64,000 nt of DNA. Origin: Trissonchulus latispiculum. Its lineage: Eukaryota > Nematoda > Enoplea > Enoplida > Ironidae. The translations under genes were made by a program, and so were the position numbers. The notes beneath the pieces are model-generated. The model had not been told where the DNA came from. It made no database searches and saw nothing but the letters and a program-made list of their open reading frames with translations. Location: NCBI GenBank assembly GCA_030248195.1, contig JASAND010006847.1:62001-126000 (forward strand), given 5' to 3'. Shown in pieces: positions 5,920 through 36,841 of this stretch; the stretch's first letter is position 1; each line of letters opens with the position of its first letter.

Positions 5920-5939
5920 TTTCACCCAACTTAGAAAAG

Positions 5940-16266: not shown

Positions 16267-16861
16267 CTATTTTCGCGGAAAATGGCTATAAATTGCACTT
16301 CGGAGGTATTCTCTAATAAACCTTAGCCTATCTTCAGCATTGGTCTCGTATGTAGGTTCAGTTCTTTTTTAACCGAAGGGGGCCTGTCGATTGGCAAATG
16401 TTTGCCTAAAATGCGTGTTAGTTTTACAGCAAATACAGCTTTTATTTCGAGTCTGTCGGTGTCTTAGTTGTCCTTGACCTATGAAAATTAAGCTGTCTTG
16501 TTTTAAAATTTTTTCTACGCCCCCCACAGACGAAATTTCTGCTAAGCTGATGTTTGCATTGCCCCCTCTAAGTTTATAGAATGTGGAAGCGAAGTTTTGA
16601 ACATTATGCAAATTAGGTCAACAAAATCTGAGAACATTCCCGAAAAAGCTTTCTCTGACTGATTGCACCACTAAACTTTATTAGCAACCTTGCCCTCTGT
16701 CAGTTGTTACAATAATGAGTGATTGGTAGCCCAATACTAGGAGTAACATAAAGCAACAATCTGTGGTCCCAGTCTTAGTTTTGGAGCTGTTTATGAAAGA
16801 CCATGGTATCCTTCCGTAAGTAGTATATTAGGTGCTCAAAACCTTATGAGCCCTTGATTTA

Positions 16862-18414
16862 TGTAAAGAAAAGGCTATTTGGGGGTCGTTTTTCTGTCTC
16901 TTTCAGAAACTATGCACACTTAGTTCAGCCAATACCTGATATTGACAGTGTGCTCAAGCCTCCTAACTACTCGATCGAAACCACAGGGGTCGTAAATTAT
17001 TGATATAACACAACTATATTAGGTCACTCTCTCACACGTATTCCCGAATCTAAAATTCGATGAAGCTTCCTATCTAAACTCTAATCCTACGTGATCTCGC
17101 TCGGTTTGACGCAGGTTAAGCCAAATACTCATTAGACTAAATTAAATTATTATTTTAATTAGATCGGTATAATATACATACAATATTAGATTATCTACAG
17201 TTTAAGAACGTAGGTAGCAATCGTCACAATACTAACGATATCTGAAAGCAATTGATCAACAACATATACAAGTACGACAGAATCAAGAACAACGGTTGGC
17301 GTTACACAGAATAATTGATTCCTGAACGTTCGGTTTAGTCCTCGACTTTTAGTTAACTCTTTAAAATCCTCAAGATTTTGCAAGTACAATTCTCTTTCAC
17401 GATTTCATAAGTCCAACTTACAGTTCGGGTTACCTTGGCGTTCCGGCGTCCTTGTGCGGTGTAAGTTCCAATGGGTTGATGACAGGTCCTCCTCGAACAA
17501 GGGAATGAGAAAATCACAGAACAAGCGCAGAATAAAAAGTATATAGAGAAACGCGAGTCGTGGCTGGCCCAAAAGCGAAAGTAAAATACAGGTCCAAGAC
17601 TGACCTTCCAACAACAATCCAAGTGTAGACCGGTCTCTCCCTCGTAGGGCCCTCGGTCGAAATCCAACAATACCAAGTAGCGCAAAAATAGTCCACCGTT
17701 CTGTTTGCCAGCACAACCACGACTGAATTTGAATTTTAGGAAATTTCGGAGTTTGGGGAAGACCTGTCAATCAAGTGAGTGACGTGCAGGAGGCGGAGCT
17801 TGCGGCCTCCTTTCATGTAGTGCGTTTCTTGCGTGTGTGTCTTATCATACGTCACTTCCCTGTGACGTATGAACCCAGCTCATGGGGTGAAGTAGGCTCC
17901 CAAAAATCCCAAACTTGGACGCATTAACCCCACTTAGTTACCTGGGGAGATAAGTCCCCAAATTTTGAGCTTTTTCGCAAACAGAGCAATAAATTTCTAA
18001 GATACATTTTCTTTTGAAATTTTCTCAACAAAGACCACTAAATCGCATCAAACCACAGCTCAGCAAACATTTTCAAAATGACATGCCGCAAACGCGGCGA
18101 CAATCACAATCAACCCAGAATCACTCAGAAATAGAAATACATGAAACTAAGAATCAACAACAGTACCTAGCTAATACCGTCAATCCATTTGTCAGAAATA
18201 GGAGCAAAACAGAATCCAATACAGAAAACCGAATTACGTACAGAAATGTCAAAAATCAGAACAAGAACAGAGTAACAGAATCAATTAGTCAATTAATCAA
18301 ACTCAGCAATCAATGATCAAACTCAGCAATCAATCTCTCAAACTTAGCTAGTTATCCCAAGATTAGCTTCCCTTCCATCAGTTAGATAGCATTCCGAAAT
18401 TCTTTGCCTCCACA
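16862..18414 (-). repeat. Element 2 LTR (3' copy in element orientation)
   Basis: A 1553-bp partner of 30877-32436. Most differences are single bases or 1-9 base indels. A block near 16945-16990 is much more diverged. A roughly 100-codon plus-strand open frame near 18014-18316 is present in both LTRs but starts without an ATG and is Gln/Asn/Ser-rich, so it is not treated as a gene. Confidence 0.95.
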
Positions 18415-18423
18415 CTCTCCACC
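18415..18423 (-). promoter_or_regulatory. Polypurine tract of element 2
   Basis: Read on the minus strand, GGTGGAGAG immediately precedes the 3' LTR. It is a short purine run where the plus-strand primer is expected. Confidence 0.6.
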
Positions 18424-19093
18424 GCAAAAAATGTGGTAGGCGTTTACTTAGGGGGGGAAGTGTAGTAAAGCAAACAAACAATCACGGCATCGATCAGTCA
18501 TCAGTGTACAATTACATTAACAAGCTCCAACCTAGACAACTCAGCTGTACAGACAGTGATAGTACATACAAAATAAAAGTTCACAATAAATCTAGTTCAT
18601 ATCAATTTCCTCTGTCGGTAGCAGTGGCGGTGGTAACAGCAGCAGTTTATGGCAGTAGTCAGTGGGAATAGTGGTGGTGGGAGATGGCCGGAGGGACACC
18701 TGCGACGGCCAGAGCTCCAGGCTGCAGATCCGGTAACTACAGCGATGGTGGCCGGTTACAGTTCACATCGGCCGGAGGAGGTGGGTGCGAACGTGCTACC
18801 CTGAGGGACAGTGATTCCAGTTGGGGCGCCGGGCGCGTAGAGTCCACGCCGGGCGGTTGATTTAGAGCAGACGGTACTGGTGGGAGGCAGGGGTGATCAC
18901 CGAGGCACTGGGCATGCCACCGGTCAGGGAAGTCGGCGGATGCCGACGTGGGGCGCCACAGGGAAGGAGTCAGTAGACGGTTCTGGTGGGTGAATGGTGA
19001 AATCAGGATTGAAAGATGTGAAGACAAGTGTCCAAGCGTTGATGACTGGTGGTGGTGTTGAATCGAACTGAGAACCTTCCGAATCAGCAAAAA

Positions 19094-19156
19094 GGGATCG
19101 AACCACGGACCAACTGAAGACCAGTCAAAAGAAAACAAAAACCCATTGCTGAGCAA
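19094..19156 (-). other. tRNA-like internal promoter boxes (possible SINE head)
   Basis: On the minus strand, TTGCTCAGCAATGGG (19142-19156) resembles a Pol III A box. GGTTCGATCCC (19094-19104) fits the B box consensus. They are about 40 bases apart, as in a tRNA gene. No convincing acceptor stem was seen, so a tRNA-derived SINE or pseudo-tRNA inside the retroelement is likelier than a working tRNA gene. Confidence 0.4.
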
Positions 19157-19345
19157 ACAGCCTAGAAATAGAACCATGTGCGGAATAAGTTATGGTATAA
19201 AAACAGCTTAATAAGGCAGTGAGTAGTTGATCTCACTGCCGTTCAGTCAATCAGTTCACTCAGGTACTTCGTGTATCAATCAAGGAATTGTCGAGTATTC
19301 AATTATTCCGTTCAAATTACCCGAAATCAGACAAAAGTCAGCAAA

Positions 19346-19696
19346 ATGGCATTTCAACGAATTGTTTCCCTCTATAACTGTGCTCAATGGCCATTAAATT
19401 CAGCAGCGTACTACAATTTATTTCGACGTCATCGTTCTACAAGTCAAGTTTCTAGGATTCTCGGTGCAACAATCAGACACAGTGTACAGAAAGTTAGTAA
19501 ACAGAAAAACAGGGCAAACTCAGTATCCGGACAGACAGAGGATCCGTGTCGCATGATCCGGATCCAATCCTTCCTGACTGCAGAAAGAGGAACAGAAAAA
19601 CAGCTGAAATATGTACAGGCACGCACGGACAGAAAACAGCTACAACACAGGTTTTTATACTTGTTGCTCAATTATTATCTTTTTAGATTTCTGTGA
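19346..19696 (+). CDS. Possible antisense small basic protein in element 2
   Basis: An open frame of about 116 codons on the strand opposite to the element's genes, starting at an ATG with a strong context (AGCAAAATGG). TATAAAAA lies upstream at 19196-19203, and TTCAGTCAATC at 19243 could be an initiator, although the spacing is longer than usual. The product would be rich in Arg, Lys, Gln and Ser with a hydrophobic C-terminal end. It has no recognisable domain. A chance frame in a low-stop region is quite possible. Confidence 0.25.
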   Translation: MAFQRIVSLYNCAQWPLNSAAYYNLFRRHRSTSQVSRILGATIRHSVQKVSKQKNRANSVSGQTEDPCRMIRIQSFLTAERGTEKQLKYVQARTDRKQLQHRFLYLLLNYYLFRFL

Positions 19697-20198
19697 TTGA
19701 ACATCCTCATCACTGTCAAGTGATACTTCTATTCATTTGTCAGAGTTCGTAAATCTATTTCAGTACAGCTAACCAGAATCAATACAGTACAAGTAACAGG
19801 AAAACAGAGAATAGCAAACAATAAGCAGTGTCACGTATGGTGCAGTGGTAGGCGCGTGGTGTGACAGCAAACTTGGAGGGAACGGGGAATCTCAGGTCCG
19901 GTGTAAACTAACCGTATCAGCAAGGGGTATGGGACCACTATCGAAGGCTGTCAGACCAGGCAGAAACATACAACTGAAACAGAAACTTATCGGTAAGTAG
20001 CATACACAAACAATAGCTGAATCCTAACATGCGGTGCGTTCAAGTGTCTATTCCTTCTAGCCTGCCTTTCACGTACCACTTTCGACGAAATTAGTGATCA
20101 ATGAACAGTTTTCTAAAAAGTGTTCTTTCTGCAAATAGCTTCCAGCGAATCTTATATTTTTCGTGAAAATGTACATTCAGCCATTGTTCAACAGAAAC

Positions 20199-20942
20199 TT
20201 AGAATTGGTTAGAAGACAGATTGGCAGGCATAAGAGGGTGCGAGCGTTGCAGTGCATTCAACAGAAAAGAGATAAGAGGGGGCAGCTGGCGGTCAAAAGG
20301 CATGCGACCGGAAGCGCCCCAGCTTGGATGCTCATACAAAACTAAAACACATTTATCGCCACACAAACGATTGGGACAACGAAAAACGGAGGGAAGAGGG
20401 GGAAGAAGCGCATGCACAGCTTCTCGCAAGCGGGCCTTAGCAGGAAACTTCTCAAACTGAAGGGTGAGGGGAGCGGGGAGGAACTGAAAGGGAACACAAT
20501 AAAAAGACAACTTAAACTTCCAAAAACACATAAGACACAGAACCGTGCTCATAGGAATTACCTCCGGCCCCAGGATGGAAATGGGCCGCCGGGGAATGTA
20601 GACCTCGGTGTGGGCCGGGGACGTGTAGACCCAATCATCGTAGTGGGATTGGCGCAGCTCAGGGGGCAAGGTCACTCGCTCCCGCTCCGGTCCTCTGGAG
20701 GGGGCGTCCATGGTCTCCGCGGCGGTGGTCGGCGGACTGTAGTGGCTCTGCCAGATGCGAACCACGGGCTGAATAGGCTGCGGGGGAAGGGACGGAGAGG
20801 TGCAGACGGCGGAATCCACCGACATCACATCATCATCCGGGTCAAGTTCAATCACATCCGACGAGACATCACTGAAGTCGGACTGGTTATCATACTGGTC
20901 CATCCAGATGTAGAAGTAGTTGTTGAGCCGGTTCTGGGACAT
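20199..20942 (-). CDS. Accessory gene B of element 2 (CFW cysteine module)
   Basis: A 247-codon frame with ATG at 20942. The N-terminal half is acidic and Pro/Ser-rich (SDVIELDPDDDVMSVDS), and resembles an intrinsically disordered segment. A conserved module follows at about residues 150-200: CLMCFWKFKLSFYCVP, then FPAK, then RCPNRLC. The same module, in the same order, is found in accessory gene A just upstream. The paired cysteines suggest a small metal-binding fold. I do not recognise the family. Its position between the OTU domain and the 3' LTR is where LTR retroviruses carry env or regulatory genes. Conservation between the two neighbours argues that both frames were coding. Confidence 0.6.
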   Translation of the reverse strand: MSQNRLNNYFYIWMDQYDNQSDFSDVSSDVIELDPDDDVMSVDSAVCTSPSLPPQPIQPVVRIWQSHYSPPTTAAETMDAPSRGPERERVTLPPELRQSHYDDWVYTSPAHTEVYIPRRPISILGPEVIPMSTVLCLMCFWKFKLSFYCVPFQFLPAPLTLQFEKFPAKARLREAVHALLPPLPSVFRCPNRLCGDKCVLVLYEHPSWGASGRMPFDRQLPPLISFLLNALQRSHPLMPANLSSNQF

Positions 20943-21098
20943 GGTTCTGAAACATACATACCACTATGAAGTAACTCGAATTGCAAGCTGAAATGGCACA
21001 AAATACGACAAGACAAAGGGACAGGACAAAACTAAAAATTAGAACTAAACTAAATTCGATCTTGTTGTATTACTAAAGAATTGCTGATCATACTGAAC

Positions 21099-21784
21099 TT
21101 AAATGAGGCGATAAGCACACTGCACTCCAGGAAAACTTAAAATATTAGGATAATAATCTGTGCTATCCCCCACCATACGCATGCGAAAATCATAAAGATC
21201 AGACGGAACGTATTTGGACAGTTGGACGACGACTTCGCGCAACGCACGCACAGTGTTATTAGACAGTGCCCTACACTCCAGGCCAAGGGGCCAACCACTC
21301 AGTTGTTGCAACAAAATCACACTTACAGCTTGACAGTTAATATTGGGACAACGACACATACCACCACCATACGACGACACATACCACCACCATACGACGA
21401 CACAGACGATTGACAGTACTGTTTTGCAGGTAAACGGGACTTACGAACTTCATCACTTACTGGGTGAATGGTTACCGGCACTCCGTAGTAGCTTAAACCG
21501 AATCTCCAAAAACATACCGTACATATCAGCGTAGCAACTTGCGCAACCTGTGGGCTAGTCAAATGTATTCGCTTATTCGACTCAAACAGGTCGTACTTTT
21601 CAGGATCAGTAAAAATATCAACAGTTCCGCGCAGCATCTTTAAACCCTCGGGTAAACAGTCGTAGTCTCGATACGGACCTCGCATCTCAAGCGGACAGTA
21701 TAAGGTAAGTGGCGCAGGCGGTGTATCATCGGTGGGATCACGATCAGGCGCAGGAGCGCAACGGGTGGGGGCTCTAGGAGCCAT
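21099..21784 (-). pseudogene. Accessory gene A of element 2, broken by a 23-bp duplication
   Basis: ATG at 21784. The first 130 or so residues are intact: a Pro-rich start, then a segment with CPLEMRGPYRDYDCLPEG, then TVCFWRFGLSYYGVPV and LPAK, matching gene B. The reading then leaves its frame inside a tandem duplication near 21347-21400, where a 23-bp unit (ACGACACATACCACCACCAT plus ACG) occurs twice. Because 23 is not a multiple of three, the conserved RCPN..C part continues in another frame (21099-21380) and ends about 90 residues later. The size and direction of the frame change match the duplication exactly. Its function is unknown. Confidence 0.6.
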
Positions 21785-22649
21785 AGCTGATTAGACACAA
21801 AACCTGAAGTTAAAATCGGTCACATTCGCATAGTTATGACTAAAAATCACTAAACCCTAATCCAGGTAGATTATGTCTCTCTAGGTATAACATTTACGTC
21901 TCGTTTGAGTATGTCTCTATCAACATTCCAGTTTCCGTCGGCTTATCTAGGTAATGTCATCATCCAACAAGGTATAAGTTACTATCCGGTTAGATTACTT
22001 AGCTAACAAGCAAATTACTTAAACAATACACAGTAACAATAACAAGAGAACGTTTTAGGAAAGGTTTTCAGATATTTTTGGATTTTCTGAACTTTATATT
22101 ACTTTTTATAGTAGGATTTTATGCTTTTGCCAAATAGAAATCTTATTTACAGTTGGACAACTATACAAAATAAACAAAAAGTTCGAACAATAAATACGTG
22201 ACAGTTTCTTTTGACTGCCAGTTTATTTTTGGTTATTTTTGGTTAACATTTTGTAACATGTTTTTGTTAAGGTTGTAAACCTTGGGTTTTCTGTGCAGCA
22301 CTTGTTCAGAAGCTGTGAATCCCGGAAGCTGCAACCGGAGCTTCTAGTGGGCATCATGGCCCAGAAGGGTTGACCGACGACTGGATAATTTTAAGTCTAC
22401 ATCAGTAAGGATGGATTAACTGAGTAGAGCAATGAAAAAGTAAAGAATGCGTAATAGCAATTAGTCGTCAAAGTTTAACGGTCAACTCCTTACCCGCATG
22501 TCAGTTTAGGGTGCGAAGCACCATACAAAGTTACTACATACAGTGCACTTAACAGGGTATAAGTTATCTTATCTGTACAGACTAAATCACTGGAATAGCT
22601 ATATTACAGGAATTATAATACAAATCACAGTAATGTTTAGCGTCCAAGA
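21785..22649 (-). other. Spacer between OTU and accessory gene A
   Basis: AT-rich sequence inside element 2. No open frame of note was seen and no integrase signature in any frame. It could hold splice sites for sub-genomic transcripts of the accessory genes; none is strong enough to call. Confidence 0.4.
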
Positions 22650-23036
22650 CTATTTCCCAGACGGACCTGAGTGTTGTTCGTCCGAAGATTCGTTGGAACG
22701 TTGAAATCTCCGAAACGGGTTTCTAAAAATAGCATTAGGCCCTGAGAAGAGTGGACTTTCAGAAAACATACGTTCAAAATCGGGTTGAGCTTTTAAAGCG
22801 TTTTGCTTAGCCGTGGCTTCAGTAGGCGAAGAAGAGTTAGAAGAACTGGTAACTAATTCTAGCACACTCAATTTCGGTGCCTTGCCAGTGGGCCAACTCC
22901 CGTGGGGAGGCTCACGAACGGATAAAACTACCATGAAGTGATCACTATTAACGTTATAGATGTAAAGAGAATTTTGTTCCATTTGGACCTGTTTTCCTAA
23001 GAGGGCAGTGGGGGGGGGAAGAGTTGCCAAGCCCAA
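22650..23036 (-). CDS. C-terminal part of the OTU protease, element 2
   Basis: About 128 codons in the -1 frame relative to 22997-23641, overlapping it at a run of nine C residues (minus strand, near 23011). Residues about 20-42 (LYIYNVNSDHFMVVLSV) supply the C-terminal strand and catalytic His expected of OTU-family cysteine proteases. The remainder is Ser- and Pro-rich and ends the pol polyprotein. A single-base change in the C run, real or from sequencing, would put both parts in one frame; programmed slippage is an alternative. Confidence 0.65.
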   Translation of the reverse strand: MGLATLPPPTALLGKQVQMEQNSLYIYNVNSDHFMVVLSVREPPHGSWPTGKAPKLSVLELVTSSSNSSSPTEATAKQNALKAQPDFERMFSESPLFSGPNAIFRNPFRRFQRSNESSDEQHSGPSGK

Positions 23037-23641
23037 AGTTTGCCGTATTTAGAGTAAGACATGATGGTAGTTTTTAGCCAAGCAGCAGTTAGAAAAATTT
23101 CATCATCAGTTGCAAATCTGGCAGCCTTGGTTAATCTCTCCTTTACCTCATTAATTTTTGGGTACAGGGCTTGAAAACGCCGTTTGTGTTCGTTAGATTC
23201 CAAAAATTCAAGAAGTCCCCGTTTAATATCTCTCCAGGAGTCTTCCAAACCAGTAATAGCTAAAGATAAAGCCCTATAATAACAATTCCCATCACCTAAT
23301 ACGTCTATTACTTCATAAGGTTCATACAGTGGCAAATGACGTAGCATTCCGGGTAGTTGAAAAGTTCGACTTTCCCTTCCTTCCCCTTTGACAACTACAG
23401 AGTTAATGTGAGCTACTAGATCATCGCTATCTTCCTGATGAAATCGTACTGACTGTCGCTCACCGTTCTGTTCCTTTCCGGGTAATCCCTTTGCCACATC
23501 TGCAAACAGGGGGTTCCTAGATAGTCCATCAGCATTCCTTAGCTGAGGGTTGTTCCTATGCTTAATCTCAAAGTCATACTCGGAGAAGGTCATTTGCCAC
23601 CTAGCTAATCGTGAATTTCGTGGGGGTGTTTCATTAACCAA
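22997..23641 (-). CDS. RNase H end plus N-terminal OTU protease, element 2
   Basis: The first 45 or so residues are the end of a Ty3 RNase H/tether (RWQMTFSEYDFEIKH...NADGLSR). After a linker, residues from about 113 start an OTU domain with VIDVLGDGNCYYRALSL, which contains the catalytic Asp and Cys (DGNC). It is followed by the helix FLESNEHKRRF and ATDDEIFLTAAWLKTTI. OTU proteases remove ubiquitin-like modifiers. In this element the domain occupies the slot where integrase normally follows RNase H. The catalytic His is in the next frame (22650-23036). The OTU assignment rests on the motif set and their spacing. Confidence 0.8.
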   Translation of the reverse strand: MVNETPPRNSRLARWQMTFSEYDFEIKHRNNPQLRNADGLSRNPLFADVAKGLPGKEQNGERQSVRFHQEDSDDLVAHINSVVVKGEGRESRTFQLPGMLRHLPLYEPYEVIDVLGDGNCYYRALSLAITGLEDSWRDIKRGLLEFLESNEHKRRFQALYPKINEVKERLTKAARFATDDEIFLTAAWLKTTIMSYSKYGKLWAWQLFPPPLPS

Positions 23642-23814
23642 CGCAGAGCTGAATGATCAGTAAAAAGAGTGAAAGGCGGTCCACCGTACAAATAATGTCG
23701 AAAGTGTTCGATACCAAATTTCATGGCTAAACATTCTTTATCGTGGGTGGAATAATTTCGTTCATACTTTTTCAGAGACCTGGCAGCGTAGGGCGACGGG
23801 GTGGTACTTTCCGT
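23642..23814 (-). pseudogene. RNase H middle segment read in a shifted frame
   Basis: Between the large frame and the OTU-bearing frame, both in the same register, about 175 bases of RNase H (KKYERNYSTHDKECLAMKFG ... TDHSALRW) are only legible in another frame. Two single-base indels of opposite sign, near 23815 and 23637, explain this. They would inactivate RNase H as assembled. Confidence 0.7.
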
Positions 23815-26800
23815 CGTCCTGCTCTTGCGATAGAACCGCTCCTAAACCTAAATCAGATGCATCAGTATGTAAAACAAATCCCTTAGCTAGATCGGGGTGG
23901 GCCAGTACAGGGGCCTCGACAAGACTTCTTTTGAGCAGTTCAAAAGATTGCTGATGAGTGTTATTCCAAACAAATCGTACTCCTTTTTTCTTGAGAGAAT
24001 ACAAGGGGGAAGCTAGATGGGCGAATCCCTTTATAAACTTAGCGTAGTACGCACACATTTCTAGAAAACTCTCAACGTCTTTAAGCGTCTTAGGTACCGC
24101 TAAATCATGTATTGCCTGAATTCTCTCCTTCAAGGGTTCGACTCCCTGTTCAGAAATGATATGTCCCAGGTAAGTAACAGATTTCTTAAGAAAATGACAT
24201 TTTCCCGGATTCATTTTCAAATCAGCAGCCCGCAGTCGGTCGAAAACTTCTTGCATAATTTCGAGATGTTCTGAGAAGGTTTTGGAGAAAATCAGAATGT
24301 CATCAATGTAAATAATACACTTTTTCCATTGCAAATCTCCCAAAATTCGCTCCATGCATCTTTGAAAGTTTCCTGGTGCACATTTCAGTCCAAACGGTAA
24401 AACGTTATATTCAAATTGACCGTGAAAGGTATTGAAACTGGCTTTTGCTTTAGAATCTTCATCCAACTCAATTTGATTAAATCCCTTACTTAGATCGATC
24501 GTCGAAAAGTATTTTGAACCCTTGAGAGAGGTCATAATATCATCGATACGGGGGATCGGATAAATATCGGGATCACTAATTTTGTTTACCCGTCTAAAAT
24601 CAACGCATAATCGCAACTTCCCGCCTGGCTTAGGTACGTAAATCATGGGGGAACTCCACGGACTAGAAGATGGACGGATTAGACCGTATTTCAACATCTC
24701 AGTCAGCTCCTCTAACAGAGGCTGTCGCAAATGTACGGGTAGACGATAGGGTGTAGCATAAAGAGGCTTAGCGTCCCCGGTGTTGATGTGAGCCTTAAAG
24801 ATGGTACATTTCCCTATGTCAAAGGAATGCTGCGAGAAACAATGCTTGTTTTGGCGGAGAAGCCCCAGAAATTGTCCTTTTTCAGTTTCATTCAAGGAGT
24901 CCTCATCAAACGAAATTGCCTGCATAGCTTCGGGCAAGTCTTTCACAGAACATGATTCGATATTTTTCAAGGAATTTATTCGAAAGTGGTGTCCCTCCCG
25001 ACTCGTTTTAGGATTAGATTTAAACCGGTTGTCCAACTTCACAACTTCCCCGTATTCGTTAACGACCTCCTCATATTTGACTTGTGGTTCCCGATGCCCA
25101 ACCCGATTACGAGGCGTTACATTGCCTAAAGTGGAGTTCTCATAAACGGTTACAGGTTGCCCAGTCCCGTTTCGCATGAGTACCGGTATACAGCGTGATC
25201 TCAAGTCTACCATGGCAGGGAGTGCCTGAACTGCACCGGCATTACCTTCAAACTTAGCTACGTCCGGTTCGAATAATCCATCATACTTAAGAGACTCTAC
25301 ACTTTCTACTAGTGCAGGTACAGCTACCTCAGCATAGGGGGGAATGATGACCTGCTTCATAGCAGATACTCGATAAGCAGTTTCTGTCACCGGGGATTGC
25401 TGTATTAGCTTAGCTACCATGGGGGGTTTACCGGCTTTTAGTAAACTCAGTTCTCCCTTGTGAAAGCTAAGGTTGAGATCCCCGCCATGCTCATGCAAGA
25501 AGTCAGTCCCCAACAGGCAATCCTCAGCTAGACCTTTAGGAACTAGAAAGGAGTGTTCAACCTTAATCCCCGGGGAGTCATAGAATTCGACAGGTAATTT
25601 GACGATACCCCTAAATTTCAGAGTTTGCCCGTTTATGCCCTCGGCGCGAGGAGGGTGCACAAGCGGTTTTACAGTTAATTTCAAGAAGTTAGCCAAGTTT
25701 TCACTCATCAGACTCAGATTAGCTCCGGTGTCAACTAAGGTCTGTATGGGGCGTCCGTTTAAGTTTACAAAGATCATGGGCAACGGTCGGTGTAGAACCG
25801 GGGTGTTAGCCCGAGATTCCCCGTGGTTTCTAATCTGAGCGGGTAAGGTACCAATGAGATGTATCTCTCGATTCCTAGAGGTCACAGGTAATTTCAGAGG
25901 AATCGTGACGTTTTTACCGTTCCGTGTAGGCCAAGTAATGGTGTGCTGTCCCAGATCGAGTGAGATTTCCCCAGGAAAGCTAGTCATAAAGTCAGATCCT
26001 ATAATGCAGTCGACAGTTAGGTTATCCACTACCACAAAGGTCCAATCGTGGATCGGTAGGGATTCCCGATTCCTATGAAATAGAACAGGTACAGTTACGG
26101 TCCCTACAATTTCACACTTCCCGCCGTTAGCAGTTTGCAAATATTGCGGTATTTCTACCGGAAGCACGTCTAGTTTGAGTTGTCGCACCAACCCAGTGGT
26201 CATGACTGAGACAAGCGATCCGGTGTCAAACAAGGCATCTACAGTTTGCCCTAGGATTAATAATGTCATAAGCAAAGGTACAGTTCGAACCATAAGTACA
26301 GAGTGTGCGTTGATAGTTCTATTGGGGTTCCCCACGAGGGAACGTGTCTGAACCTGAGAACTTCCAGTGTTAGCAGCAGAGTGAGAGACTCGGCGTTTCA
26401 AAGGACTGGTAGCCGCGTCGGAGTAAGAAACTAGTGACGAGTCAGTGGTCTCATCTCCCGAGTCTTGTTTCTCAAGTGGCTGCTGGCATGAGAACCGAAC
26501 TATATGTCGCTCATTCCTGTGTTTCTTATCTAGATTCATATCTATAGTAGGGGAGGCACAGTCGATTCTCTCATCTGATAAAAGGTTGGCGGAAGCGTCA
26601 CTGTCCTTAACATTATAATCAGACATGGAAGAGGCGTAGGACGTGTCCCTAGAAATAGCCTTAGAGGTGGCCTGACATCTATTAGCAGCCTTACGTAACT
26701 TATCGTAGTCTAGAGATCTACTAACGGGTCGCAAGGGGATCCGTTCCTCAGTTACAGCTAAGGAACCCAATTCTATAGGGGCTTCCTCCTCATCGTCACT

Positions 26801-29800
26801 AAAAAATCGTTCTGTTAGTCGACGGCCGTTTGAGGGCGCTGAGATCACTGGCGCTGCCGCGTTAGTATCAGGTTTACGATGACACTTACCTCGAACTCGG
26901 TTTCTAAATTTGCGACCACAAGGCGTAACCCAGAAAACTATGACACATCCAATAACCACAACAATTATTACCATAAACAGTCCATGGTTAAGTTGCAAGG
27001 GTACAAAAGGCAAGTGTACATACTCCTTCATTTGATCCTGTATGAGGTTCCGAGCCTGTTCATTCTCGTATTCGGCGGTAGATAGTTCAGTGAAATGTAA
27101 TGGTATCCTACCTAAGGGAGCAGGCACAACTGTTTCCTTGAGATCGGCTAATGTAACAGTCGTCCTAGCGATTCCTAACGTACTAGTAAGAATAGTGTTT
27201 CCTATAATAAGATGCAGATAGCGGCCGTGTTCGAACCAGAGCGTGCCCGTTTCTGGCACTGGCACTCTTTCTCCTTCGGACACATGATTCAGAGACGGCG
27301 ACCTAGCTACAATAACTTCGGTATAATTGGTCCGAATGAGCACTCCCGCAGGTGTGGTACGATACTCAGTGGAGTTATCCAAGACCTTAACTTTGACATA
27401 GTCCTTACAAGTGCTAAACTCTTTCTCTACCCTATCTTCGGAGAATGAGATAAGAATTTGTAGACACTTAGCTCTAAGGCTTGTAACGATAGCATTCGGA
27501 GGACAAAACCAAAGGCCAGGTGCGGTTTTACATTCGGTTACGTCGATCTCACGGACTTCACCGGAATCCAACCGTTGAGCATAGTCCGGCATAGGAGCCA
27601 GGGTGGTGATGCCGTGTAACCTAGAGTTGTAACCTAAGTTGTGTACTGCGTACAGTGGTCTCACCTCCTGTTCCAGTGGCACGGGGATTTCGAGCATAAA
27701 TCCAAATCTGAGCGAATTAAAGTCAATCTTAATAGGATAAACTTTGCCGAATTGGTAGATGAGACTAGGTTCTTGACTTAGCAGTGAATTGCGCAAGGAT
27801 GGATGCGTTTTGATTATCCCTTTCAGAGTTTGCAAATTAACGAGTCCCGGAGTAATTTCAGATCGCAACCCAGCGTGCATCACAGAATTTAAACCTTCAC
27901 GTAAAGAAGAAGTGAAAATATGAGCTAATAATTGCATGTAAATTTGTCGCATGTATGAGAAATTAGAACATCTGGCACGAATAATGAGTGTGGTCAGATC
28001 TTGAACTGTGTGATGCAGAAAGGCATAAACTTGCTCGTTTGCGTGTACGATTTTCCGAACTGAATCGGTAATTTTGATCTGCTCATCCCGAAGAATATGA
28101 AATCCCTGTTCCACGGCATTTACCTTAGCGTCTAACTTACCTAAGTGATAGGAGTTTGACAGGCTGTTGGCTATACCACCTATCCCCAATGCACCGGCTA
28201 ACAGAAATTCGATAAAACGTTTATGACGCTGCCTACCTGGTTCGATAGGTGGATAAGAAGTACAGACACCTGGGGTAGATCGGCATAGACTAGCTAGTAA
28301 TTTAGAATAGAAATTTGTGTTCAAAACTCCCGAATAAAGCTTTCGGTATTCCGCTTTTATCTGATCAATTTCTTGTTCCAAAAAGTCATGCTGGGGGCAA
28401 CTCTGGTTTATCATTCGCACACAATACTGGTCCGTCTTAGCTTTACCAGTATTAAGATCGATACAATCCTCCTCATTCGCCCACTCGGGGGGTTTCCACT
28501 GCGGCGAGATAGGGGGCACCGCCAACTGCACAATCAAAGCTAAGTACTCAGTTTTCTGAGATATTACTCCTATACCCGCGGGACTCAAGACAGCTCCCCA
28601 ACGGGGCAACACAACCGTACCTATCTTAGCTATTTCGTCTGCCAAAAAATGAGACGACCCAGTTTCCGTAGCCGACTGAGCACTAGCGGTTGAAAGTAGT
28701 AAACCCATCATGAGCCAAAAGATGGGCATACCGAGTTTTCTCAGTGAACGGACAGCCGAAAAGAAAGACCAAAATGGTATCAGAAGTAGTGAAAAGTCAA
28801 AAGTCTTTGGTTTTTCGGTTTCCGTCTCGAAAATTTCCAACAATTTATCTGAATAAAGTTCGCACTGAACAGCAACGGTATGAGATCTAGTACCCACCTT
28901 CGTTTCGCGATAACTTTCATAGTTTCGCGGACTTACGTCGTCAGAATTAGAAATAGGAATAAACAACTCCTCATCGGTTGAGGTTACGGTACTAGGAGTG
29001 AGCGCACCTCTCAGCAAGCAGGGTGGCTCGTAACGTTCTGGTCGACAGGTGCAAACCATTGGCTGTCGACACATCAGAATTCTGTGCGAGAAATGCGGCG
29101 AAGTAAGGCACCTTTTCGCGTGCCGCACACATTGGGGGGAAACAGCCCGTACTGAACGAGCAGAGTACTGGCCAGCCGACCCGGAGTCAGACCGAGGCTG
29201 TCGACTGTAATACTGCCTATGACTGTGATATTCCGAACGATCACTGCCAGAGTAAGCTGAAGAACCCGAGTAACGTCGATCCCTAGCGGAGTCGTCGTGA
29301 TAGTACCCGTCTCCCTGAGCTCTAGATCGAGAGACTGCGAATTTTGGCCCATACTCACGCCTCATCTCCGAAGGGAGATCAGACCGCTGATCCCTTCGGT
29401 CGTTCGGTTGACCATTGTCTCGCCGGTTGTCAGGTCGAAACCGTTCATTCCTATACTGTGGATCATAATTTCTATCATCTCTACGCTCATAATTTCTGTT
29501 ATCTCTACCATCATAATTTCTATTATTCCTGTTGTCATAACGATCCCTATTACTATTACCATTACTATCATTATATCTACCACGATCATAATTGTCACGC
29601 CTTTGCCCATTTCGATTATCATAGTTTCGATTTCGTTCAGAATTGCGAAAAGACCCACGGTTAGATTGAAAATTTTGGTTTCTTGCCTGATAGGCTCCTC
29701 CTCCCGGTTGTCGGCACTCACGTCGGACATGTCCGGGCTTATTACAGTTAAAACAGGTGGTACCGGGAGGCAGGTCTCGTGAACGCTCAGATTTTCCAGC

Positions 29801-30619
29801 ACTGGACGCTTTTTTGGAGTTTTCAGCCTCAAACTTTTCGAAACGAATCTTCAAATCTCTGACAGCCTTTTCTGCTTCAGCAATTGCAGCTGGAGCGTCC
29901 TGCTCTGCTCGAAAATTAGGTTCTAAAAAGGATGGGTATCCCTCCCCTGGGTACTCTCCTTCTGCCAACTGAGCCCTCTCAACAGCCTTAGCTAACGTAG
30001 TACACCCCGGAGGCACTCTGTTTTTGAGATCGGTTCTCAATCCGAAAAGAAACAATCGCAATTTTAGCAGTTCAACTTGTTTGTCGGTGAACCCGTCCTC
30101 CTCCTTAAAACTAAGGCGAGCATACCTATTCAAACGCATGAGATAATCTGCTACAGGTTCCCCTTTTTCTTGCTTCACCTGGAACATTAGGGACGAGGCG
30201 TGAAGCGCAGTATGCGGGGGTACCATAATCTTTTTAGCTTCCGCGATCAGTTCAGTCCATTTGCCCCGGCTATCCTTGGGCACAGATCGGAAGAGTTCAA
30301 GAGCACGCCCTTTCAAAGAACTGGAGAAAGTATGCACTTTTTGCCATTCATCAAAATTCATGACGCTACAAAATCTTTCGTATTTTTCGACGTGCTCTTC
30401 AAACGATTCCGAGGAGTGACCATGGTGGATAGGCACTGAACTGAAAGCAGTGGCTACCCCTTGTGCTCTAACTACAGCATTAAATTCGGTCAAGGTTTTA
30501 GTTAGCGCGGTTAAAGCAACGTTTTCGGGTCCAGCCGGTGGCGGCGTGGACGGGGGAGATTCCGGCTGTTCCGGTGGGTTGGGAGGTGTCCCCCCTCCCG
30601 TCTCTGCAGGATCAGGCAT
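23762..30619 (-). CDS. Gag-Env-PR-PR-RT polyprotein of element 2
   Basis: 2285 codons from the ATG at 30619, uninterrupted. Residues 60-235 are a Gag capsid-like region, 289-302 a CCHC knuckle (CFNCNKPGHVRREC), and 310-480 an Arg/Asn/Asp/Tyr-rich tract. An envelope-like glycoprotein spans about 631-1235. Retropepsin 1 has DTGS at 1465 and IIGSDF. Retropepsin 2 has DTGA at 1630 and LLGTDF. RT runs about 1960-2170 with YIDD at 2104-2107. RNase H begins near 2245 (TDASDLGLGAV), and the frame ends 20 or so residues later at an indel. RT and RNase H are of Ty3/gypsy type. Env normally follows integrase in env-bearing Ty3 elements; here it lies between Gag and the first protease in one frame. Separate Env or Gag-Pol products would need splicing or internal initiation, which I could not demonstrate. 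Confidence 0.9.
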   Translation of the reverse strand: MPDPAETGGGTPPNPPEQPESPPSTPPPAGPENVALTALTKTLTEFNAVVRAQGVATAFSSVPIHHGHSSESFEEHVEKYERFCSVMNFDEWQKVHTFSSSLKGRALELFRSVPKDSRGKWTELIAEAKKIMVPPHTALHASSLMFQVKQEKGEPVADYLMRLNRYARLSFKEEDGFTDKQVELLKLRLFLFGLRTDLKNRVPPGCTTLAKAVERAQLAEGEYPGEGYPSFLEPNFRAEQDAPAAIAEAEKAVRDLKIRFEKFEAENSKKASSAGKSERSRDLPPGTTCFNCNKPGHVRRECRQPGGGAYQARNQNFQSNRGSFRNSERNRNYDNRNGQRRDNYDRGRYNDSNGNSNRDRYDNRNNRNYDGRDNRNYERRDDRNYDPQYRNERFRPDNRRDNGQPNDRRDQRSDLPSEMRREYGPKFAVSRSRAQGDGYYHDDSARDRRYSGSSAYSGSDRSEYHSHRQYYSRQPRSDSGSAGQYSARSVRAVSPQCVRHAKRCLTSPHFSHRILMCRQPMVCTCRPERYEPPCLLRGALTPSTVTSTDEELFIPISNSDDVSPRNYESYRETKVGTRSHTVAVQCELYSDKLLEIFETETEKPKTFDFSLLLIPFWSFFSAVRSLRKLGMPIFWLMMGLLLSTASAQSATETGSSHFLADEIAKIGTVVLPRWGAVLSPAGIGVISQKTEYLALIVQLAVPPISPQWKPPEWANEEDCIDLNTGKAKTDQYCVRMINQSCPQHDFLEQEIDQIKAEYRKLYSGVLNTNFYSKLLASLCRSTPGVCTSYPPIEPGRQRHKRFIEFLLAGALGIGGIANSLSNSYHLGKLDAKVNAVEQGFHILRDEQIKITDSVRKIVHANEQVYAFLHHTVQDLTTLIIRARCSNFSYMRQIYMQLLAHIFTSSLREGLNSVMHAGLRSEITPGLVNLQTLKGIIKTHPSLRNSLLSQEPSLIYQFGKVYPIKIDFNSLRFGFMLEIPVPLEQEVRPLYAVHNLGYNSRLHGITTLAPMPDYAQRLDSGEVREIDVTECKTAPGLWFCPPNAIVTSLRAKCLQILISFSEDRVEKEFSTCKDYVKVKVLDNSTEYRTTPAGVLIRTNYTEVIVARSPSLNHVSEGERVPVPETGTLWFEHGRYLHLIIGNTILTSTLGIARTTVTLADLKETVVPAPLGRIPLHFTELSTAEYENEQARNLIQDQMKEYVHLPFVPLQLNHGLFMVIIVVVIGCVIVFWVTPCGRKFRNRVRGKCHRKPDTNAAAPVISAPSNGRRLTERFFSDDEEEAPIELGSLAVTEERIPLRPVSRSLDYDKLRKAANRCQATSKAISRDTSYASSMSDYNVKDSDASANLLSDERIDCASPTIDMNLDKKHRNERHIVRFSCQQPLEKQDSGDETTDSSLVSYSDAATSPLKRRVSHSAANTGSSQVQTRSLVGNPNRTINAHSVLMVRTVPLLMTLLILGQTVDALFDTGSLVSVMTTGLVRQLKLDVLPVEIPQYLQTANGGKCEIVGTVTVPVLFHRNRESLPIHDWTFVVVDNLTVDCIIGSDFMTSFPGEISLDLGQHTITWPTRNGKNVTIPLKLPVTSRNREIHLIGTLPAQIRNHGESRANTPVLHRPLPMIFVNLNGRPIQTLVDTGANLSLMSENLANFLKLTVKPLVHPPRAEGINGQTLKFRGIVKLPVEFYDSPGIKVEHSFLVPKGLAEDCLLGTDFLHEHGGDLNLSFHKGELSLLKAGKPPMVAKLIQQSPVTETAYRVSAMKQVIIPPYAEVAVPALVESVESLKYDGLFEPDVAKFEGNAGAVQALPAMVDLRSRCIPVLMRNGTGQPVTVYENSTLGNVTPRNRVGHREPQVKYEEVVNEYGEVVKLDNRFKSNPKTSREGHHFRINSLKNIESCSVKDLPEAMQAISFDEDSLNETEKGQFLGLLRQNKHCFSQHSFDIGKCTIFKAHINTGDAKPLYATPYRLPVHLRQPLLEELTEMLKYGLIRPSSSPWSSPMIYVPKPGGKLRLCVDFRRVNKISDPDIYPIPRIDDIMTSLKGSKYFSTIDLSKGFNQIELDEDSKAKASFNTFHGQFEYNVLPFGLKCAPGNFQRCMERILGDLQWKKCIIYIDDILIFSKTFSEHLEIMQEVFDRLRAADLKMNPGKCHFLKKSVTYLGHIISEQGVEPLKERIQAIHDLAVPKTLKDVESFLEMCAYYAKFIKGFAHLASPLYSLKKKGVRFVWNNTHQQSFELLKRSLVEAPVLAHPDLAKGFVLHTDASDLGLGAVLSQEQDDGKYHPVALRCQVSEKV
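26870..28729 (-). other. Envelope-like fusion glycoprotein domain inside the polyprotein
   Basis: Within the 2285-residue frame, Met631 begins a hydrophobic leader (PIFWLMMGLLLSTASA). An ectodomain with many Cys and several N-X-S/T sites follows. A furin-type site, RHKR, ends at residue 801. A hydrophobic, Gly/Ala-rich segment (FIEFLLAGALGIGG) follows directly, then a heptad-like helical stretch. A transmembrane span at about 1215-1231 (FMVIIVVVIGCVIVFWV) leads to a basic cytoplasmic tail. This is the layout of class I fusion proteins, such as the F-like envelopes of insect errantiviruses. The assignment to that class is by layout, not by close sequence match. Confidence 0.8.
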
Positions 30620-30876
30620 TCTGTATATTACGTAATATTATCTTACCTAACTAAACAACTAGGTTACAAGACAAAGTTATTATCACTTAACCACTTATTC
30701 GTAACACACACACAATTATACCTCGTTAGTGATCAAAAATAGTGAGTTCTTTTGGAAAAAATAAGGAGCCCAGAATTTTTCAGAGAAAACAAACTTAAGG
30801 AACGTTGCGAATTGATCTTTCTAAAAATTCTGTTTGAAAAACTCCAATATTTTTTCCTCCAAAGGCGGGCTCCACA
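30620..30876 (-). promoter_or_regulatory. Leader and primer binding site of element 2
   Basis: Between the 5' LTR and gag. Two bases inside the LTR, the minus strand reads TGGAGCCCGCCTTTGG (30859-30874 region), a plausible pairing site for a tRNA 3' end. The tRNA is not identified. The remainder is untranslated leader. Confidence 0.6.
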
Positions 30877-32436
30877 TGTAAAGAAAAGGCTATTTGGGGG
30901 TCGTTTTTCTGTCTCTTTCAGAAACTATGCACACTTAGTTCAGCCAATACGTCTGGATAACTGACAGTGTGCCTCCCAATTACTTCGAACGAAACCACAG
31001 GGGTCGTAAATTATTGATATAACACAACTATATTAGGTCACTCTCTCACACGTATTCCCGAATCTAAAATTCGATGAAGCTTCCTATCTAAACTCTAATC
31101 CTACGTGATCTCGCTCGGTTTGACGCAGGTTAAGCCAAATACTCATTAGACTAAATTAAATTATTATTTTAATTAGATCGGTATAATATACATACAATAT
31201 TAGATTATCTACAGTTTAAGAACGTAGGTAGCAATCGTCACAATACTAACGATATCTGAAAGCAATTGATCAACAACATATACAAGTACGACAGAATCAA
31301 GAACAACGGTTGGCGTTACACAGAATAATTGATTCCTGAACGTTCGGTTTAGTCCTCGACTTTTAGTTAACTCTTTAAAATCCTCAAGATTTTGCAAGTA
31401 CAATTCTCTTTCACGATTTCATAAGTCCAACTTACAGATTCGGGTTACCTTGGCGTTCCGGCGTCCTTGTGCGCGTGTAAGTTCCAATGGGTTGATGACA
31501 GGTCCTCCTCGAACAAGTAGGAATGGGTGAGAAAATCACAGAACAAGCGCAGAATAAAAAGTGTATAGAGAAACGCGAGTCGTGGCTGGCCCAAAAGCGA
31601 AAGTAAAATACAGGTCCAAGACTGACCTTCCAACAACAATCCAAGTGTAGACCGGTCTCTCCCTCGTAGGGCCCTCGGTCGAAATCCAACAATACCAAGT
31701 AGCGCAAAAATAGTCCACCGTTCTGTTTGCCAGCACAACCACGACTGAATTTGAATTTTAGGAAATTTCGGAGTTTGGGGAAGACCTGTCAATCAAGTGA
31801 GTGACGTGCAGGAGGCGGAGCTTGCGGCCTCCGTTCATGTAGTGCGTTTCTTGCGTGTGTGTCTTATCATACGTCACTTCCCTGTGACGTATGAACCCAG
31901 CTCATGGGGTGAAGTAGGCTCCCAAAAATCCCAAACTTGGACGCATTAACCCCACTTAGTTACCTGGGGAGATAAGTCCCCAAATTTTGAGCTTTTTCGC
32001 AAACAGAGCAATAAATTTCTAAGATACATTTTCTTTTGAAATTTTCTCAACAAAGACCACTAAATCGCATCAAACCACAGCTCAGCAAACATTTTCAAAA
32101 TGACATGCCGCAAACGCGGCGACAATCACAATCAACCCAGAATCACTCAGAAATAGAAATACATGAAACTAAGAATCAACAACAGTACCTAGCTAATACA
32201 GTCAATCCATTTGTCAGAAATAGGAGCAAAACAGAATCCAATACAGAAAACCGAATTACGTACAGAAATGTCAAAAATCAGAACAAGAACAGAGTAACAG
32301 AATCAATTAGTCAATTAATCAAACTCAGCAATCAATGATCAAACTCAGCAATCAATCTCTAAAACTTAGCTAGTTATCCCAAGATTAGCTTCCCTTCCAT
32401 CAGTTAGATAGCATTCCGAAATTCTTTGCCTCCACA
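30877..32436 (-). repeat. Element 2 LTR (5' copy in element orientation)
   Basis: 1560 bp, partner of 16862-18414. It is followed by TTTA at 32437-32440. It should contain the element's promoter, reading leftwards into gag. Confidence 0.95.
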
Positions 32437-32440
32437 TTTA

Positions 32441-32812: not shown

Positions 32813-32815
32813 TTA

Positions 32816-33398
32816 TGCGTCTGTCAAATTAACTAAGGTACACTGCGTGCAGCAATTGCATAGAAATACTTTTATTTCTATACAGATTGCAATAAAACTG
32901 CATAGAAATTGTTTTAAAATTGATTAAATCTGTGTAGATTTGCTACTTTTACGAAGGATGTCTGCATAGAAATGGATATAAATCTGTACAAAATTGCTTT
33001 GTTTATAAAGGGAGTTTATGCATAATCTACCCAGAAATTAGTAAAATGAAAACGTAAGTTGTGCACATTCTATACAGATTTATAACCCTAAATTACGTCA
33101 TGTGCCATGAAATGTGTAGTGAAGATATGCAGTCACAACTATGTTGTAGACAGAATTCGTATAGACAATGATTAACAGGTGCAACAATTCTGCACAGCTT
33201 TTGAGGAAGCAATGTTTAAATCTGCACAGAAACTCCTTTTCGAAATTATAATTCTATGCAGAAACCGAAATAAATCTGTGTAGAATTCTCATCTTCCATA
33301 ACCTATCTGTCTAGAATTCTTCATAGTTTGCTTATTGATAAAATGCATTTCTATACAATTGCTGCACATAGTGTACCTTAGTTAGTTTGACAGACGCA
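32816..33398. mobile_element. Harbinger-like MITE, 583 bp
   Basis: Terminal inverted repeats of about 55 bp: the left starts TGCGTCTGTCAAATTAACTA and the right ends GTTTGACAGACGCA, with few mismatches. The element is flanked by TTA at 32813-32815 and 33399-33401. A 3-bp TTA duplication is typical of PIF/Harbinger transposons. The interior is non-coding and repeats variants of TCTATRCAGAAAT in both orientations. A transposase must come from elsewhere. Confidence 0.8.
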
Positions 33399-33509
33399 TT
33401 AAGTTGATCCAGTTGATCTCGTTTATAAAACTCAAACCTAGGCAGCTTTAAGAAGATTAGGTGTATAGTGTTGATGTGAAAAATTCGGGTTCAATGTGCA
33501 ATTCCTTCA

Positions 33510-35882: not shown

Positions 35883-36123
35883 ATGCGGTGTGGAGTTGAC
35901 CATAAAGATAACAAATTCGATTGTCCTGCAATAAACAGTGCCTGCCATTACTGTCAAAGAAAAGGACATTACGAAAGATTCTGTAAACAAAAGAAATATC
36001 AGAACAAACCACGACGTACGGCTGTCAGGCAAGTCGACACCCACCTAGAAGATTCAGTCCAAATACTGAAAGTCCATGATTTAACCGACAACAAAGCACT
36101 TAAATATACCGTCACGATCGAAG
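35883..36123 (+). pseudogene. Nucleocapsid zinc knuckles of element 3
   Basis: A frame reading CGVDHKDNKFDC and CHYCQRKGHYERFC, the second a canonical CCHC knuckle. It ends in the region where the protease frame begins and is separated from it by another frame change. Confidence 0.75.
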
Positions 36124-36840
36124 ATGCACGTGGAAAACGGCATAAAAGAATTCTTAATCGATACGGGATCGCCTGTTTCACTGCTTCCTTTTGAACAGTA
36201 TCAACAACTCTTTCCCAACTGTCCACGCGCGGTTACCCGAACCCGATTGACAGCTTATGACAATAAACCAATCACGACGCACGGTTGTGCAACTGTAAAG
36301 ATTAAAAGTGACAATACTGACTTATATGCCAAATTCGTTGTTGTAGATGGAACCACTTCCCTTTTAGGCCTTGACATTATTCAGCTCTTAAAGTTGAAAA
36401 TTGACTGTTCCACCTTGACCGTAGCTCAAATCTCCATGAGTGACATTACAGTGAACTACCCAAACCTGTTTTCGGAAAACCCAGGAAAAATCAAATGTTA
36501 CCAACACCGCATTAAAGTTCTTCCTGGTGCAATCCCCACCATTCAAAAGCATAAAAGTGTTCCATTCTCCCTAAAGCAACAAGTCGCTGAAGAGCTGGTT
36601 CAATTGGAGAAAGACGGGGTCATCGAAAAAATTGAAACGTCAGAGTGGCTCCACCCAATGGTTGTAGTCCTAAAACCCAATGGTAAAATCAGAATATGCT
36701 GTAACCTGCGAAAGCTTAATGATGTTATAATACCCGACAAGTTTCCCATACCCGTTATAGAAGAAATATTTTCGACATTGCGCGATGGGAAACTGTTTAC
36801 TAAGATAGACCTAAAAAAGCTTACTTTCAACTGGAATTAA
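36124..36840 (+). pseudogene. Protease and N-terminal RT of element 3
   Basis: Retropepsin motif EFLIDTGSPVSLLP near the start with SLLGLDIIQLL about 60 residues later. RT then begins (GVIEKIETSEWLHPMVVVLK, IRICCNLRKLND, KIDLKK). The frame breaks at a run of A residues near 36816-36822, after which RT continues in another frame. Confidence 0.85.
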
Positions 36841-36841
36841 C

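What the first reader, a model, noticed from the sequence alone, without database searches (positions are those of the whole stretch)
16862..32436. A 15.6-kb LTR retroelement with the order gag-env-PR-PR-RT-RNase H-OTU and no visible integrase
LTRs, a TTTA target duplication, primer site and a 2285-codon polyprotein define a coherent, fairly recent element. Ty3 elements normally run gag-PR-RT-RH-IN with env, if present, last. Here env sits before the protease, the protease is doubled, an OTU domain follows RNase H, and two paralogous accessory genes come last. I know of no named family with this combination.
Basis: partly seen in the sequence, partly recalled or inferred. Interest (0 to 1): 0.92.

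Follow-up and report, generated by a model that had tools for sequence, protein, structure and literature searches.

The report
Retroelement with envelope before polymerase
This is a broken copy of a large family of virus-like jumping genes, probably in an animal genome, whose members keep an envelope-like protein in the middle of one giant protein, between the capsid and the enzymes, an arrangement for which I found no published match.

Summary
The element is real: 1.55-kb LTRs (98.3% identical), TTTA duplication, and a 2,285-codon frame with gag, an envelope-like glycoprotein, two proteases, RT and part of RNase H. The host genome (733.8 Mb) settles the rest. Env has 64 scored matches. On 17 contigs env and OTU matches report one open frame of equal length (3,359-3,396 codons). 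In 4 of 4 open-frame copies read from RNase H to OTU, one per sub-lineage, an integrase lies between them. The window copy lost it by an in-frame 2,202-bp deletion between 8-bp repeats, not seen in other scored copies, so 'no integrase' is damage to one copy.

The family layout is gag-env-PR-PR-RT-RH-IN-OTU in one frame, then two or three paralogous accessory genes. Env-before-protease is not a rearrangement: it recurs in sub-lineages saturated at synonymous sites and in a distant relative (P0012; RT 65%, env 30% identical). RT places it in Ty3/Metaviridae. Env matches no known family I could search.

My preferred mechanism, inferred and not shown: one polyprotein threaded through the membrane co-translationally, Gag cytosolic, Env lumenal, Pol cytosolic, as in flaviviruses. 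A spliced env message is an equal rival. A new variant of a known kind.

The parts
30877..32436 (-). 5' LTR (element runs on the minus strand)
   Evidence: 98.3% identical to 16862-18414, TG...CA ends
16862..18414 (-). 3' LTR
16858..16861 (.). TTTA target-site duplication, one side
   Evidence: read directly
32437..32440 (.). TTTA target-site duplication, other side
   Evidence: read directly
23765..30619 (-). polyprotein frame of this copy, gag to RNase H; first Met at 30619, cut short by a frame slip in RNase H
30104..30331 (-). gag capsid-like region (Retrotrans_gag, residues 98-173)
   Evidence: E 3.1e-6
29708..29758 (-). CCHC zinc knuckle (residues 289-305)
   Evidence: E 4.9e-5
26879..28744 (-). 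envelope-like glycoprotein (ends approximate): signal-like segment, furin-like site at residue 799 followed by a glycine-rich hydrophobic segment, 8 invariant Cys, transmembrane segment 1214-1232
   Evidence: 64 scored genomic matches
25988..26257 (-). aspartic protease 1 (residues 1456-1545)
   Evidence: DTG motif
25493..25768 (-). aspartic protease 2 (residues 1619-1710)
   Evidence: 31% identical to PR1
24155..24637 (-). reverse transcriptase (residues 1996-2156)
   Evidence: E 1.7e-38; Ty3 RT by PDB E 3.6e-59
23520..23968 (-). RNase H (lower end approximate), interrupted by frame slips in this copy
23351..23358 (-). site of the 2,202-bp in-frame deletion that removed integrase; 8-bp repeat left at the junction
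22650..23320 (-). OTU-like cysteine protease domain and C-terminal tail (upper end approximate), with a frame slip at a C run near 23018
   Evidence: orthologues above Pfam cut-off in 2 of 4
21099..21790 (-). accessory gene 1, frame-broken at a short tandem duplication in this copy
20199..20963 (-). accessory gene 2 (254 codons stop to stop), paralogue of gene 1; Cys-x2-Cys and Cys-Pro-Asn-x2-Cys pairs

Best explanation
The window holds a defective copy of an abundant, envelope-bearing Ty3/Metaviridae lineage whose standard form encodes gag-env-PR-PR-RT-RH-IN-OTU in one frame of about 3,350-3,400 codons, followed by a tandem array of paralogous, probably zinc-binding accessory genes. This copy lost its integrase by deletion between short direct repeats (the deletion is shown; its mechanism is inferred from the repeats); whether that happened during reverse transcription, with integrase supplied in trans, or after insertion is unknown. 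Proposed working of the intact form (inferred): the genomic RNA is translated into one polyprotein; Gag stays in the cytosol, an internal signal sequence sends Env into the secretory lumen, the transmembrane segment returns the chain to the cytosol, and the paired proteases, possibly acting as a single-chain dimer, release Pol. Furin-type cleavage primes Env, IN integrates with a 4-bp duplication, and OTU removes ubiquitin from element or host proteins during the cycle.
For: Architecture: 20 of 64 env matches and 29 rows of the OTU search (151 matches, list cut at the end; 3 of the 29 with a stop inside the matched stretch) report open frames of at least 3,340 codons; 17 contigs appear in both lists with the same frame length, which I take as the same frame. 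Integrase (H2C2, rve) between RNase H and OTU in 4 of 4 copies read. Zinc knuckle, furin-type site and two DTG in that order with no stop over 5.1 kb in 18 of the 30 best env loci, the window's included; the other 12 have stops. Two DTG in all four sub-lineages. Independent relative P0012: PR2-RT-RH 48%, env 30% over 664 residues in the same order; RT clade with the window 100/98. Constraint: fourfold third positions in RNase H differ at 59-77% between sub-lineages while the protein stays 95.5-96.8% identical; env 81-92%, IN 84-89%, OTU 62-73%, PR1 56-64%, PR2 66-75% identical, and Ks beyond saturation in 71 of 78 domain comparisons. Deletion: of 40 scored matches (79 candidates) to a 101-bp junction probe only the window spans it; 33 end at or just before the 8-bp repeat and 6 begin there. 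Single polyprotein: no stop between gag and OTU; no in-frame Met shared by all four sub-lineages before the conserved env block; splice-acceptor-like sites there not at equal distances and above the shuffled expectation in only 1 of 4.
Against: Co-translational threading gives Gag, Env and Pol in equal amounts, unlike known retroelements (general knowledge). No RNA or protein data were available. The signal-like segment passes a mean hydropathy of 1.6 over 19 residues in only 2 of 6 rows (P0012 1.86, L043 2.08; window and L010 1.58, L033 1.23, L044 1.46). A further hydrophobic stretch (1.79-1.94) starts 25 residues before the DTG of PR1 in all 5 rows of this genome, not in P0012 (1.21), and would spoil the topology if it spans the membrane. 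Each sub-lineage has an in-frame Met 16-22 residues before the conserved env block (two share one), so internal initiation is not excluded, nor is splicing. Env has no sequence match to a known glycoprotein, and both structure predictions failed (mean pLDDT 33.5 and 34.0), so its fusion role rests on motifs. OTU is below Pfam's cut-off in the window and in 2 of 4 relatives.
Confidence: 0.85

Rival explanations
1. Same architecture, but Env is made from a spliced subgenomic RNA that fuses a short leader to the env frame (or by internal initiation); the unbroken frame is incidental.
For: Spliced env messages are the rule in retroviruses, and Cer1 makes a spliced 3' protein from a gag-pol frame without a stop (passages of PMC10309623). 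In-frame Met codons lie 16-22 residues before the conserved env block in four of four sub-lineages.
Against: Acceptor-like sites upstream of env are not at equal distances in four sub-lineages (not compared base by base); counts are below the shuffled expectation in 3 of 4 (2 vs 2.77, 2 vs 2.56, 1 vs 1.84) and above it in one (5 vs 2.19). A spliced env would read on through PR-RT-IN-OTU unless terminated.
Confidence: 0.4
2. One reading: an integrase-less family that integrates by another route or in trans.
For: The integrase profile finds nothing in the window copy, though it finds three other integrases in the same window, one of which supplied the seed.
Against: Integrase present in 4 of 4 open-frame copies read; the deletion junction is spanned only by the window copy among 40 scored matches.
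Confidence: 0.03
3. A chimera or rearranged insertion: an env captured into a normal Ty3 by assembly error or recombination.
For: The layout is unusual, and the window copy itself is damaged.
Against: Same order in many copies and four diverged sub-lineages and in P0012 from another source.
Confidence: 0.02
4. The env-like segment is not an envelope but a membrane-anchored accessory domain, for example for budding or membrane anchoring of the replication complex.
For: No recognisable homologue apart from P0012; it sits inside Gag-Pol, where membrane anchoring alone would be useful.
Against: Signal-like segment, basic cleavage site followed by a glycine-rich hydrophobic stretch, 8 invariant cysteines, single strong transmembrane segment at its end, strong conservation.
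Confidence: 0.15

Closest known systems
Ty3/Gypsy (Metaviridae) retrotransposons
   Same: PR-RT-RH-IN order, RT (PDB Ty3 entries 4ol8/7q5b, E 3.6e-59 and 2.5e-58), CCHC gag, IN with a GPY string (by eye), TG...CA LTRs
   Different: Env between gag and PR in one frame; PR doubled; OTU after IN; accessory array 3'
Errantiviruses and other env-bearing Ty3 elements
   Same: Ty3 pol plus a putative envelope with a furin-type site
   Different: There env is a separate gene after pol (recalled; for retroviruses the gag-pol-env order is stated in passages of PMC10309623); here it precedes the protease
P0012, 'MAG: pol polyprotein [Nitrospirales bacterium]'
   Same: env-PR-RT-RH in the same order; sister RT
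   Different: Only one protease found; record ends in RNase H, so IN and OTU are untested; the bacterial label is presumably contamination (inference)
Ginger1 DNA transposons (passages of PMC2836005)
   Same: Gypsy-type integrase with GPY/F motif followed by an OTU protease domain (OTU in some families, Ulp1 in others)
   Different: Cut-and-paste element with terminal inverted repeats; it is a transposase, not a gag-RT element
Troyka (abstract and domain section of PMC12440569)
   Same: Mostly a single Gag-Pol frame, animal hosts
   Different: No env in any Troyka, 3-bp duplications, CG...CG ends
Bdelloid rotifer LTR elements (passages of PMC5408684)
   Same: Capture of extra ORFs, env-like genes
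   Different: Extra ORFs lie downstream of pol as ORF3; 'OTU' 0 occurrences in the text

Membership tests
Ty3/Metaviridae | RT groups with Ty3 | tested here: met
   Ty3 entries are the best PDB matches; RT tree among 36 rows of Ty3-type relatives, no named clade reference included, so the clade within Ty3 is untested
Ty3/Metaviridae | pol order PR-RT-RH-IN | tested here: met
   RH-IN in 4 of 4 open-frame copies read at the 3' half; PR-RT-RH in the window
Ty3/Metaviridae | LTRs TG...CA and 4-6 bp duplication | tested here: met
   window copy only
Ty3/Metaviridae | GPY/F module in integrase | tested here: met
   GPY string after the DDE core in L039-L042 by eye; motif label from passages of PMC12440569 and PMC2836005
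Env-bearing Ty3 (errantivirus type) | env gene downstream of pol | tested here: not met
   env lies before PR in the 18 of 30 fetched env loci that are fully open; the other 12 are broken
Retroviridae | dual RNase H (tether plus RH) and env last | tested here: not met
   env is not last; the tether was not tested
Ginger1 | terminal inverted repeats, transposase without RT | tested here: not met
   LTRs and RT present
Troyka | 3-bp duplication, CG...CG termini, no env | tested here: not met
   TTTA, TG...CA, env-like segment present
Class I viral fusion glycoprotein | trimeric alpha-helical fusion fold | tested here: inconclusive
   two AlphaFold jobs at pLDDT 33.5 and 34.0
OTU deubiquitinase | Cys box and His box | tested here: met
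   DGNC and DHF boxes in 4 of 4 copies by eye (the boxes are recalled features of OTU); Pfam above cut-off in 2 of 4; weak PDB matches to OTU proteins, best E 0.0044
OTU deubiquitinase | cleaves ubiquitin | not testable with these tools
   needs an enzyme assay

The most novel reading that the evidence does not exclude
A retroelement lineage that makes Gag, Env and Pol from one uninterrupted polyprotein threaded through the membrane, flavivirus-style, with a covalently paired protease and an integrase-OTU fusion like that of Ginger1 transposases.
Probability: 0.35. Interest if true: 0.87.

Novelty: new variant of a known kind. Interest (0 to 1): 0.72.

Why it matters
Retroviruses and the env-bearing LTR elements that I know of place env last and decouple its expression from gag-pol. 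A successful lineage with env inside the polyprotein frame shows that this rule is not required, and would allow a direct test of how a membrane glycoprotein can be embedded in Gag-Pol. The IN-OTU arrangement repeats the Ginger1 transposase layout and bears on where that fusion arose. The case also shows that integrase absence in one genomic copy should not be read as a family trait.

Tried and rejected
Rejected: integrase-less family. Chimeric insertion. OTU as a chance match: the window score alone is weak (E 0.018), but 2 of 4 relatives exceed the cut-off and the genome gave 151 OTU matches. Membership of Troyka, Ginger1 and errantiviruses (see membership test).

Led nowhere: env search of the protein database (none at E <= 0.01 among 7,988 scored); that search missed P0012, which does encode a related env, so it is no proof of absence. 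The same search with P0012's env found only itself. Scans of viral contigs and of prokaryote genome contigs confirmed no relative. Env structure, PDB sequence matches (none below E 0.33) and PHROGs (a phage library; best E 0.34 for env). The host was not identified; 'animal' is inferred. A COX1-like fragment reads better with AAA as Lys and TGA as Trp, which by eye speaks against flatworm or echinoderm mitochondrial code. The integrase count over the genome did not complete. Literature: ten paper searches charged. In the listings and passages seen I found no gag-env-pol LTR element and no OTU-bearing LTR retrotransposon; 'OTU' in PMC2774666 means taxonomic unit (passages) and in PMC11943222 a fungal gene not described as part of an LTR element in the passage seen. 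Most subscription papers and Repbase are not covered.

Full report
WHAT IS THERE. On the minus strand of 16862-32436 lies an LTR element: LTRs of 1,553 and 1,560 bp, 98.3% identical over the alignment (8 mismatches, 11 gap openings; 4 and 7 of these in one patch of about 55 bp), TG...CA ends and a TTTA duplication. A frame of 2,285 codons from its first Met carries a gag region and zinc knuckle, a long middle part, two aspartic proteases, RT and the start of RNase H. PR1 and PR2 are 31% identical with both DTG motifs kept. RNase H continues through frame slips, an OTU-like domain follows and slips at a C run, and two paralogous ORFs come last.

NO INTEGRASE IN THIS COPY. A profile of 175 integrase stretches drawn from the 120 listed relatives, with the seed from another Ty3 element of the window, finds three other integrases in the window (502, 225 and 59 bits; the first is the seed's own source) and nothing in the element; the best fragment there scores 5.7 bits on the opposite strand.

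THE FAMILY HAS ONE. The host genome is held as G000, 733.8 Mb. An env search gave 64 scored matches of 1,150 candidates, in groups at about 91-100%, 84-87% and 80-82% identity; 20 of 64 report open frames of at least 3,340 codons. A copy at C11170, 99% identical in env, has H2C2, the DDE core and a GPY string between RNase H and OTU in the same frame. The same holds for C4060, C666 and C17596, chosen from the other groups for their open frames; Pfam finds H2C2 and rve in 4 of 4 and OTU above its cut-off in 2 of 4. An OTU search gave 151 matches (150 of 558 candidates scored); 29 of the listed rows report frames of at least 3,340 codons, 3 of these with a stop inside the matched stretch, and 17 contigs occur in both lists with equal frame length.

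HOW THE WINDOW COPY LOST IT. Aligning the window with C11170 shows one 2,202-bp gap, 734 codons, in frame, between two 8-bp direct repeats. A 101-bp junction probe matched 40 scored places of 79 candidates; only the window copy spans the junction, 33 end at or just before the repeat and 6 begin there. The deletion is therefore private as far as scored.

ENV BEFORE PROTEASE IS A FAMILY TRAIT. Of the 30 best env loci, fetched with 1.5-kb flanks and including the window's, 18 are open over the whole 5.1 kb and show zinc knuckle, furin-type site and two DTG in that order; the other 12 have stops in that frame. Both DTG are also present in the two more distant sub-lineages. Of 120 listed relatives of the pol region (1,983 found), P0012 (1,705 aa, NCBI label 'Nitrospirales', presumably eukaryotic contamination) was the one I compared over env: it has env-PR-RT-RH in the same order, 48% identical in PR2-RT-RH and 30% over 664 env residues; Pfam sees one protease there. 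In a 36-row RT tree (a selection from about 120 rows at hand) the two are sisters (100/98), next to P0048, an RT-RH-IN protein cut off at its start (100/99).

SELECTION. Between four sub-lineages, RNase H fourfold third positions differ at 59-77% while the protein stays 95.5-96.8% identical. Env is 81-92% identical, IN 84-89%, OTU 62-73%, PR1 56-64%, PR2 66-75%, linkers 33-61%; Ks could not be computed for saturation in 71 of 78 comparisons. Env is thus held about as tightly as integrase. Copies at 98-100% env identity (15 of 64 rows, the window's included) point to recent spread.

THE ENVELOPE. By eye it has a signal-like segment ending in small residues, a basic site followed by a glycine-rich hydrophobic stretch, eight cysteines invariant in six rows including P0012, and one strong transmembrane segment. 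The signal-like segment is only moderately hydrophobic: 2 of 6 rows pass 1.6 over 19 residues. A further stretch of 1.79-1.94 begins 25 residues before the PR1 DTG in all five rows of this genome. No Pfam or PDB family matches, and AlphaFold on two sequences failed. I call it a putative fusion glycoprotein by motif only.

EXPRESSION. The frame has no stop from gag to OTU. No in-frame Met before the env block is shared by all four sub-lineages, though each has one 16-22 residues before it and two share one; acceptor-like sites are not at equal distances and exceed the shuffled expectation in 1 of 4. I favour co-translational threading of one polyprotein, with splicing an equal rival and the stretch before PR1 as an open problem.

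ACCESSORY GENES. C11170 has both open, gene 2 at 99% and gene 1 at 93% identity to the window over the parts aligned. They recur in C4060 (64% and 54%), C666 (49% and 41%) and C17596 (45% and 36%), which has three in tandem. The ORFs read in these copies carry Cys-x2-Cys and Cys-Pro-Asn-x2-Cys pairs, so a zinc site is likely (by eye). Cer1 of C. elegans has a 3' protein needed for export of its genomic RNA (passages of PMC10309623); a similar role here is a guess.

AGAINST KNOWN KINDS. Some Ginger1 transposases also join a Gypsy-type integrase to an OTU domain (passages of PMC2836005). Troyka has no env (section of PMC12440569). Bdelloid elements keep extra ORFs after pol (passages of PMC5408684). 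Odin elements lack env (passages of PMC9040795). In the listings of eight answered searches I saw no paper on this layout; Repbase and most subscription journals were not searchable.

VERDICT. The order is real and unusual; the missing integrase is damage to one copy. New variant of Ty3/Metaviridae.

Noticed in passing
window 48354-48837 and 60527-61010: A second LTR-like pair, 99.4% identical, TG...CA ends, enclosing a gag-like ORF (53853-56240) and an integrase fragment (56666-57004).
   Followed up: partly
window 811-5940 (-) and 36085-38717 (+): Two further Ty3-type elements with integrase.
   Followed up: partly
P0012: A retroelement protein of eukaryotic type filed under a Nitrospirales bacterium MAG, presumably contamination.
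   Followed up: partly
L049 681-3007 (G000:C17596): Three tandem paralogous accessory ORFs instead of two.
   Followed up: partly
window 62104-63578: Degenerate tandem and inverted repeat block.
   Followed up: no
window 32815-32873 and 33341-33399: 59-bp inverted repeat arms, 90% complementary, 467 bp apart, next to the element; MITE-like.
   Followed up: no
window 42623-43804 (+): 393-codon ORF with ankyrin-like repeats by eye, possibly a host gene.
   Followed up: no
G000:C17523:28493-29676: COX1-like stretch with frame breaks and an ND1-like stretch behind it (by eye), nuclear copy or poor mitochondrial contig.
   Followed up: partly
window 16936-16989 and 30951-30990: Half of the LTR-LTR mismatches (4 of 8) and 7 of 11 gap openings sit in one short patch, as from gene conversion or local assembly error.
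   Followed up: no
polyprotein residues 1439-1465 (about window 26230-26310): Hydrophobic stretch just before PR1, present in all five rows of this genome and absent in the single-protease relative P0012.
   Followed up: partly
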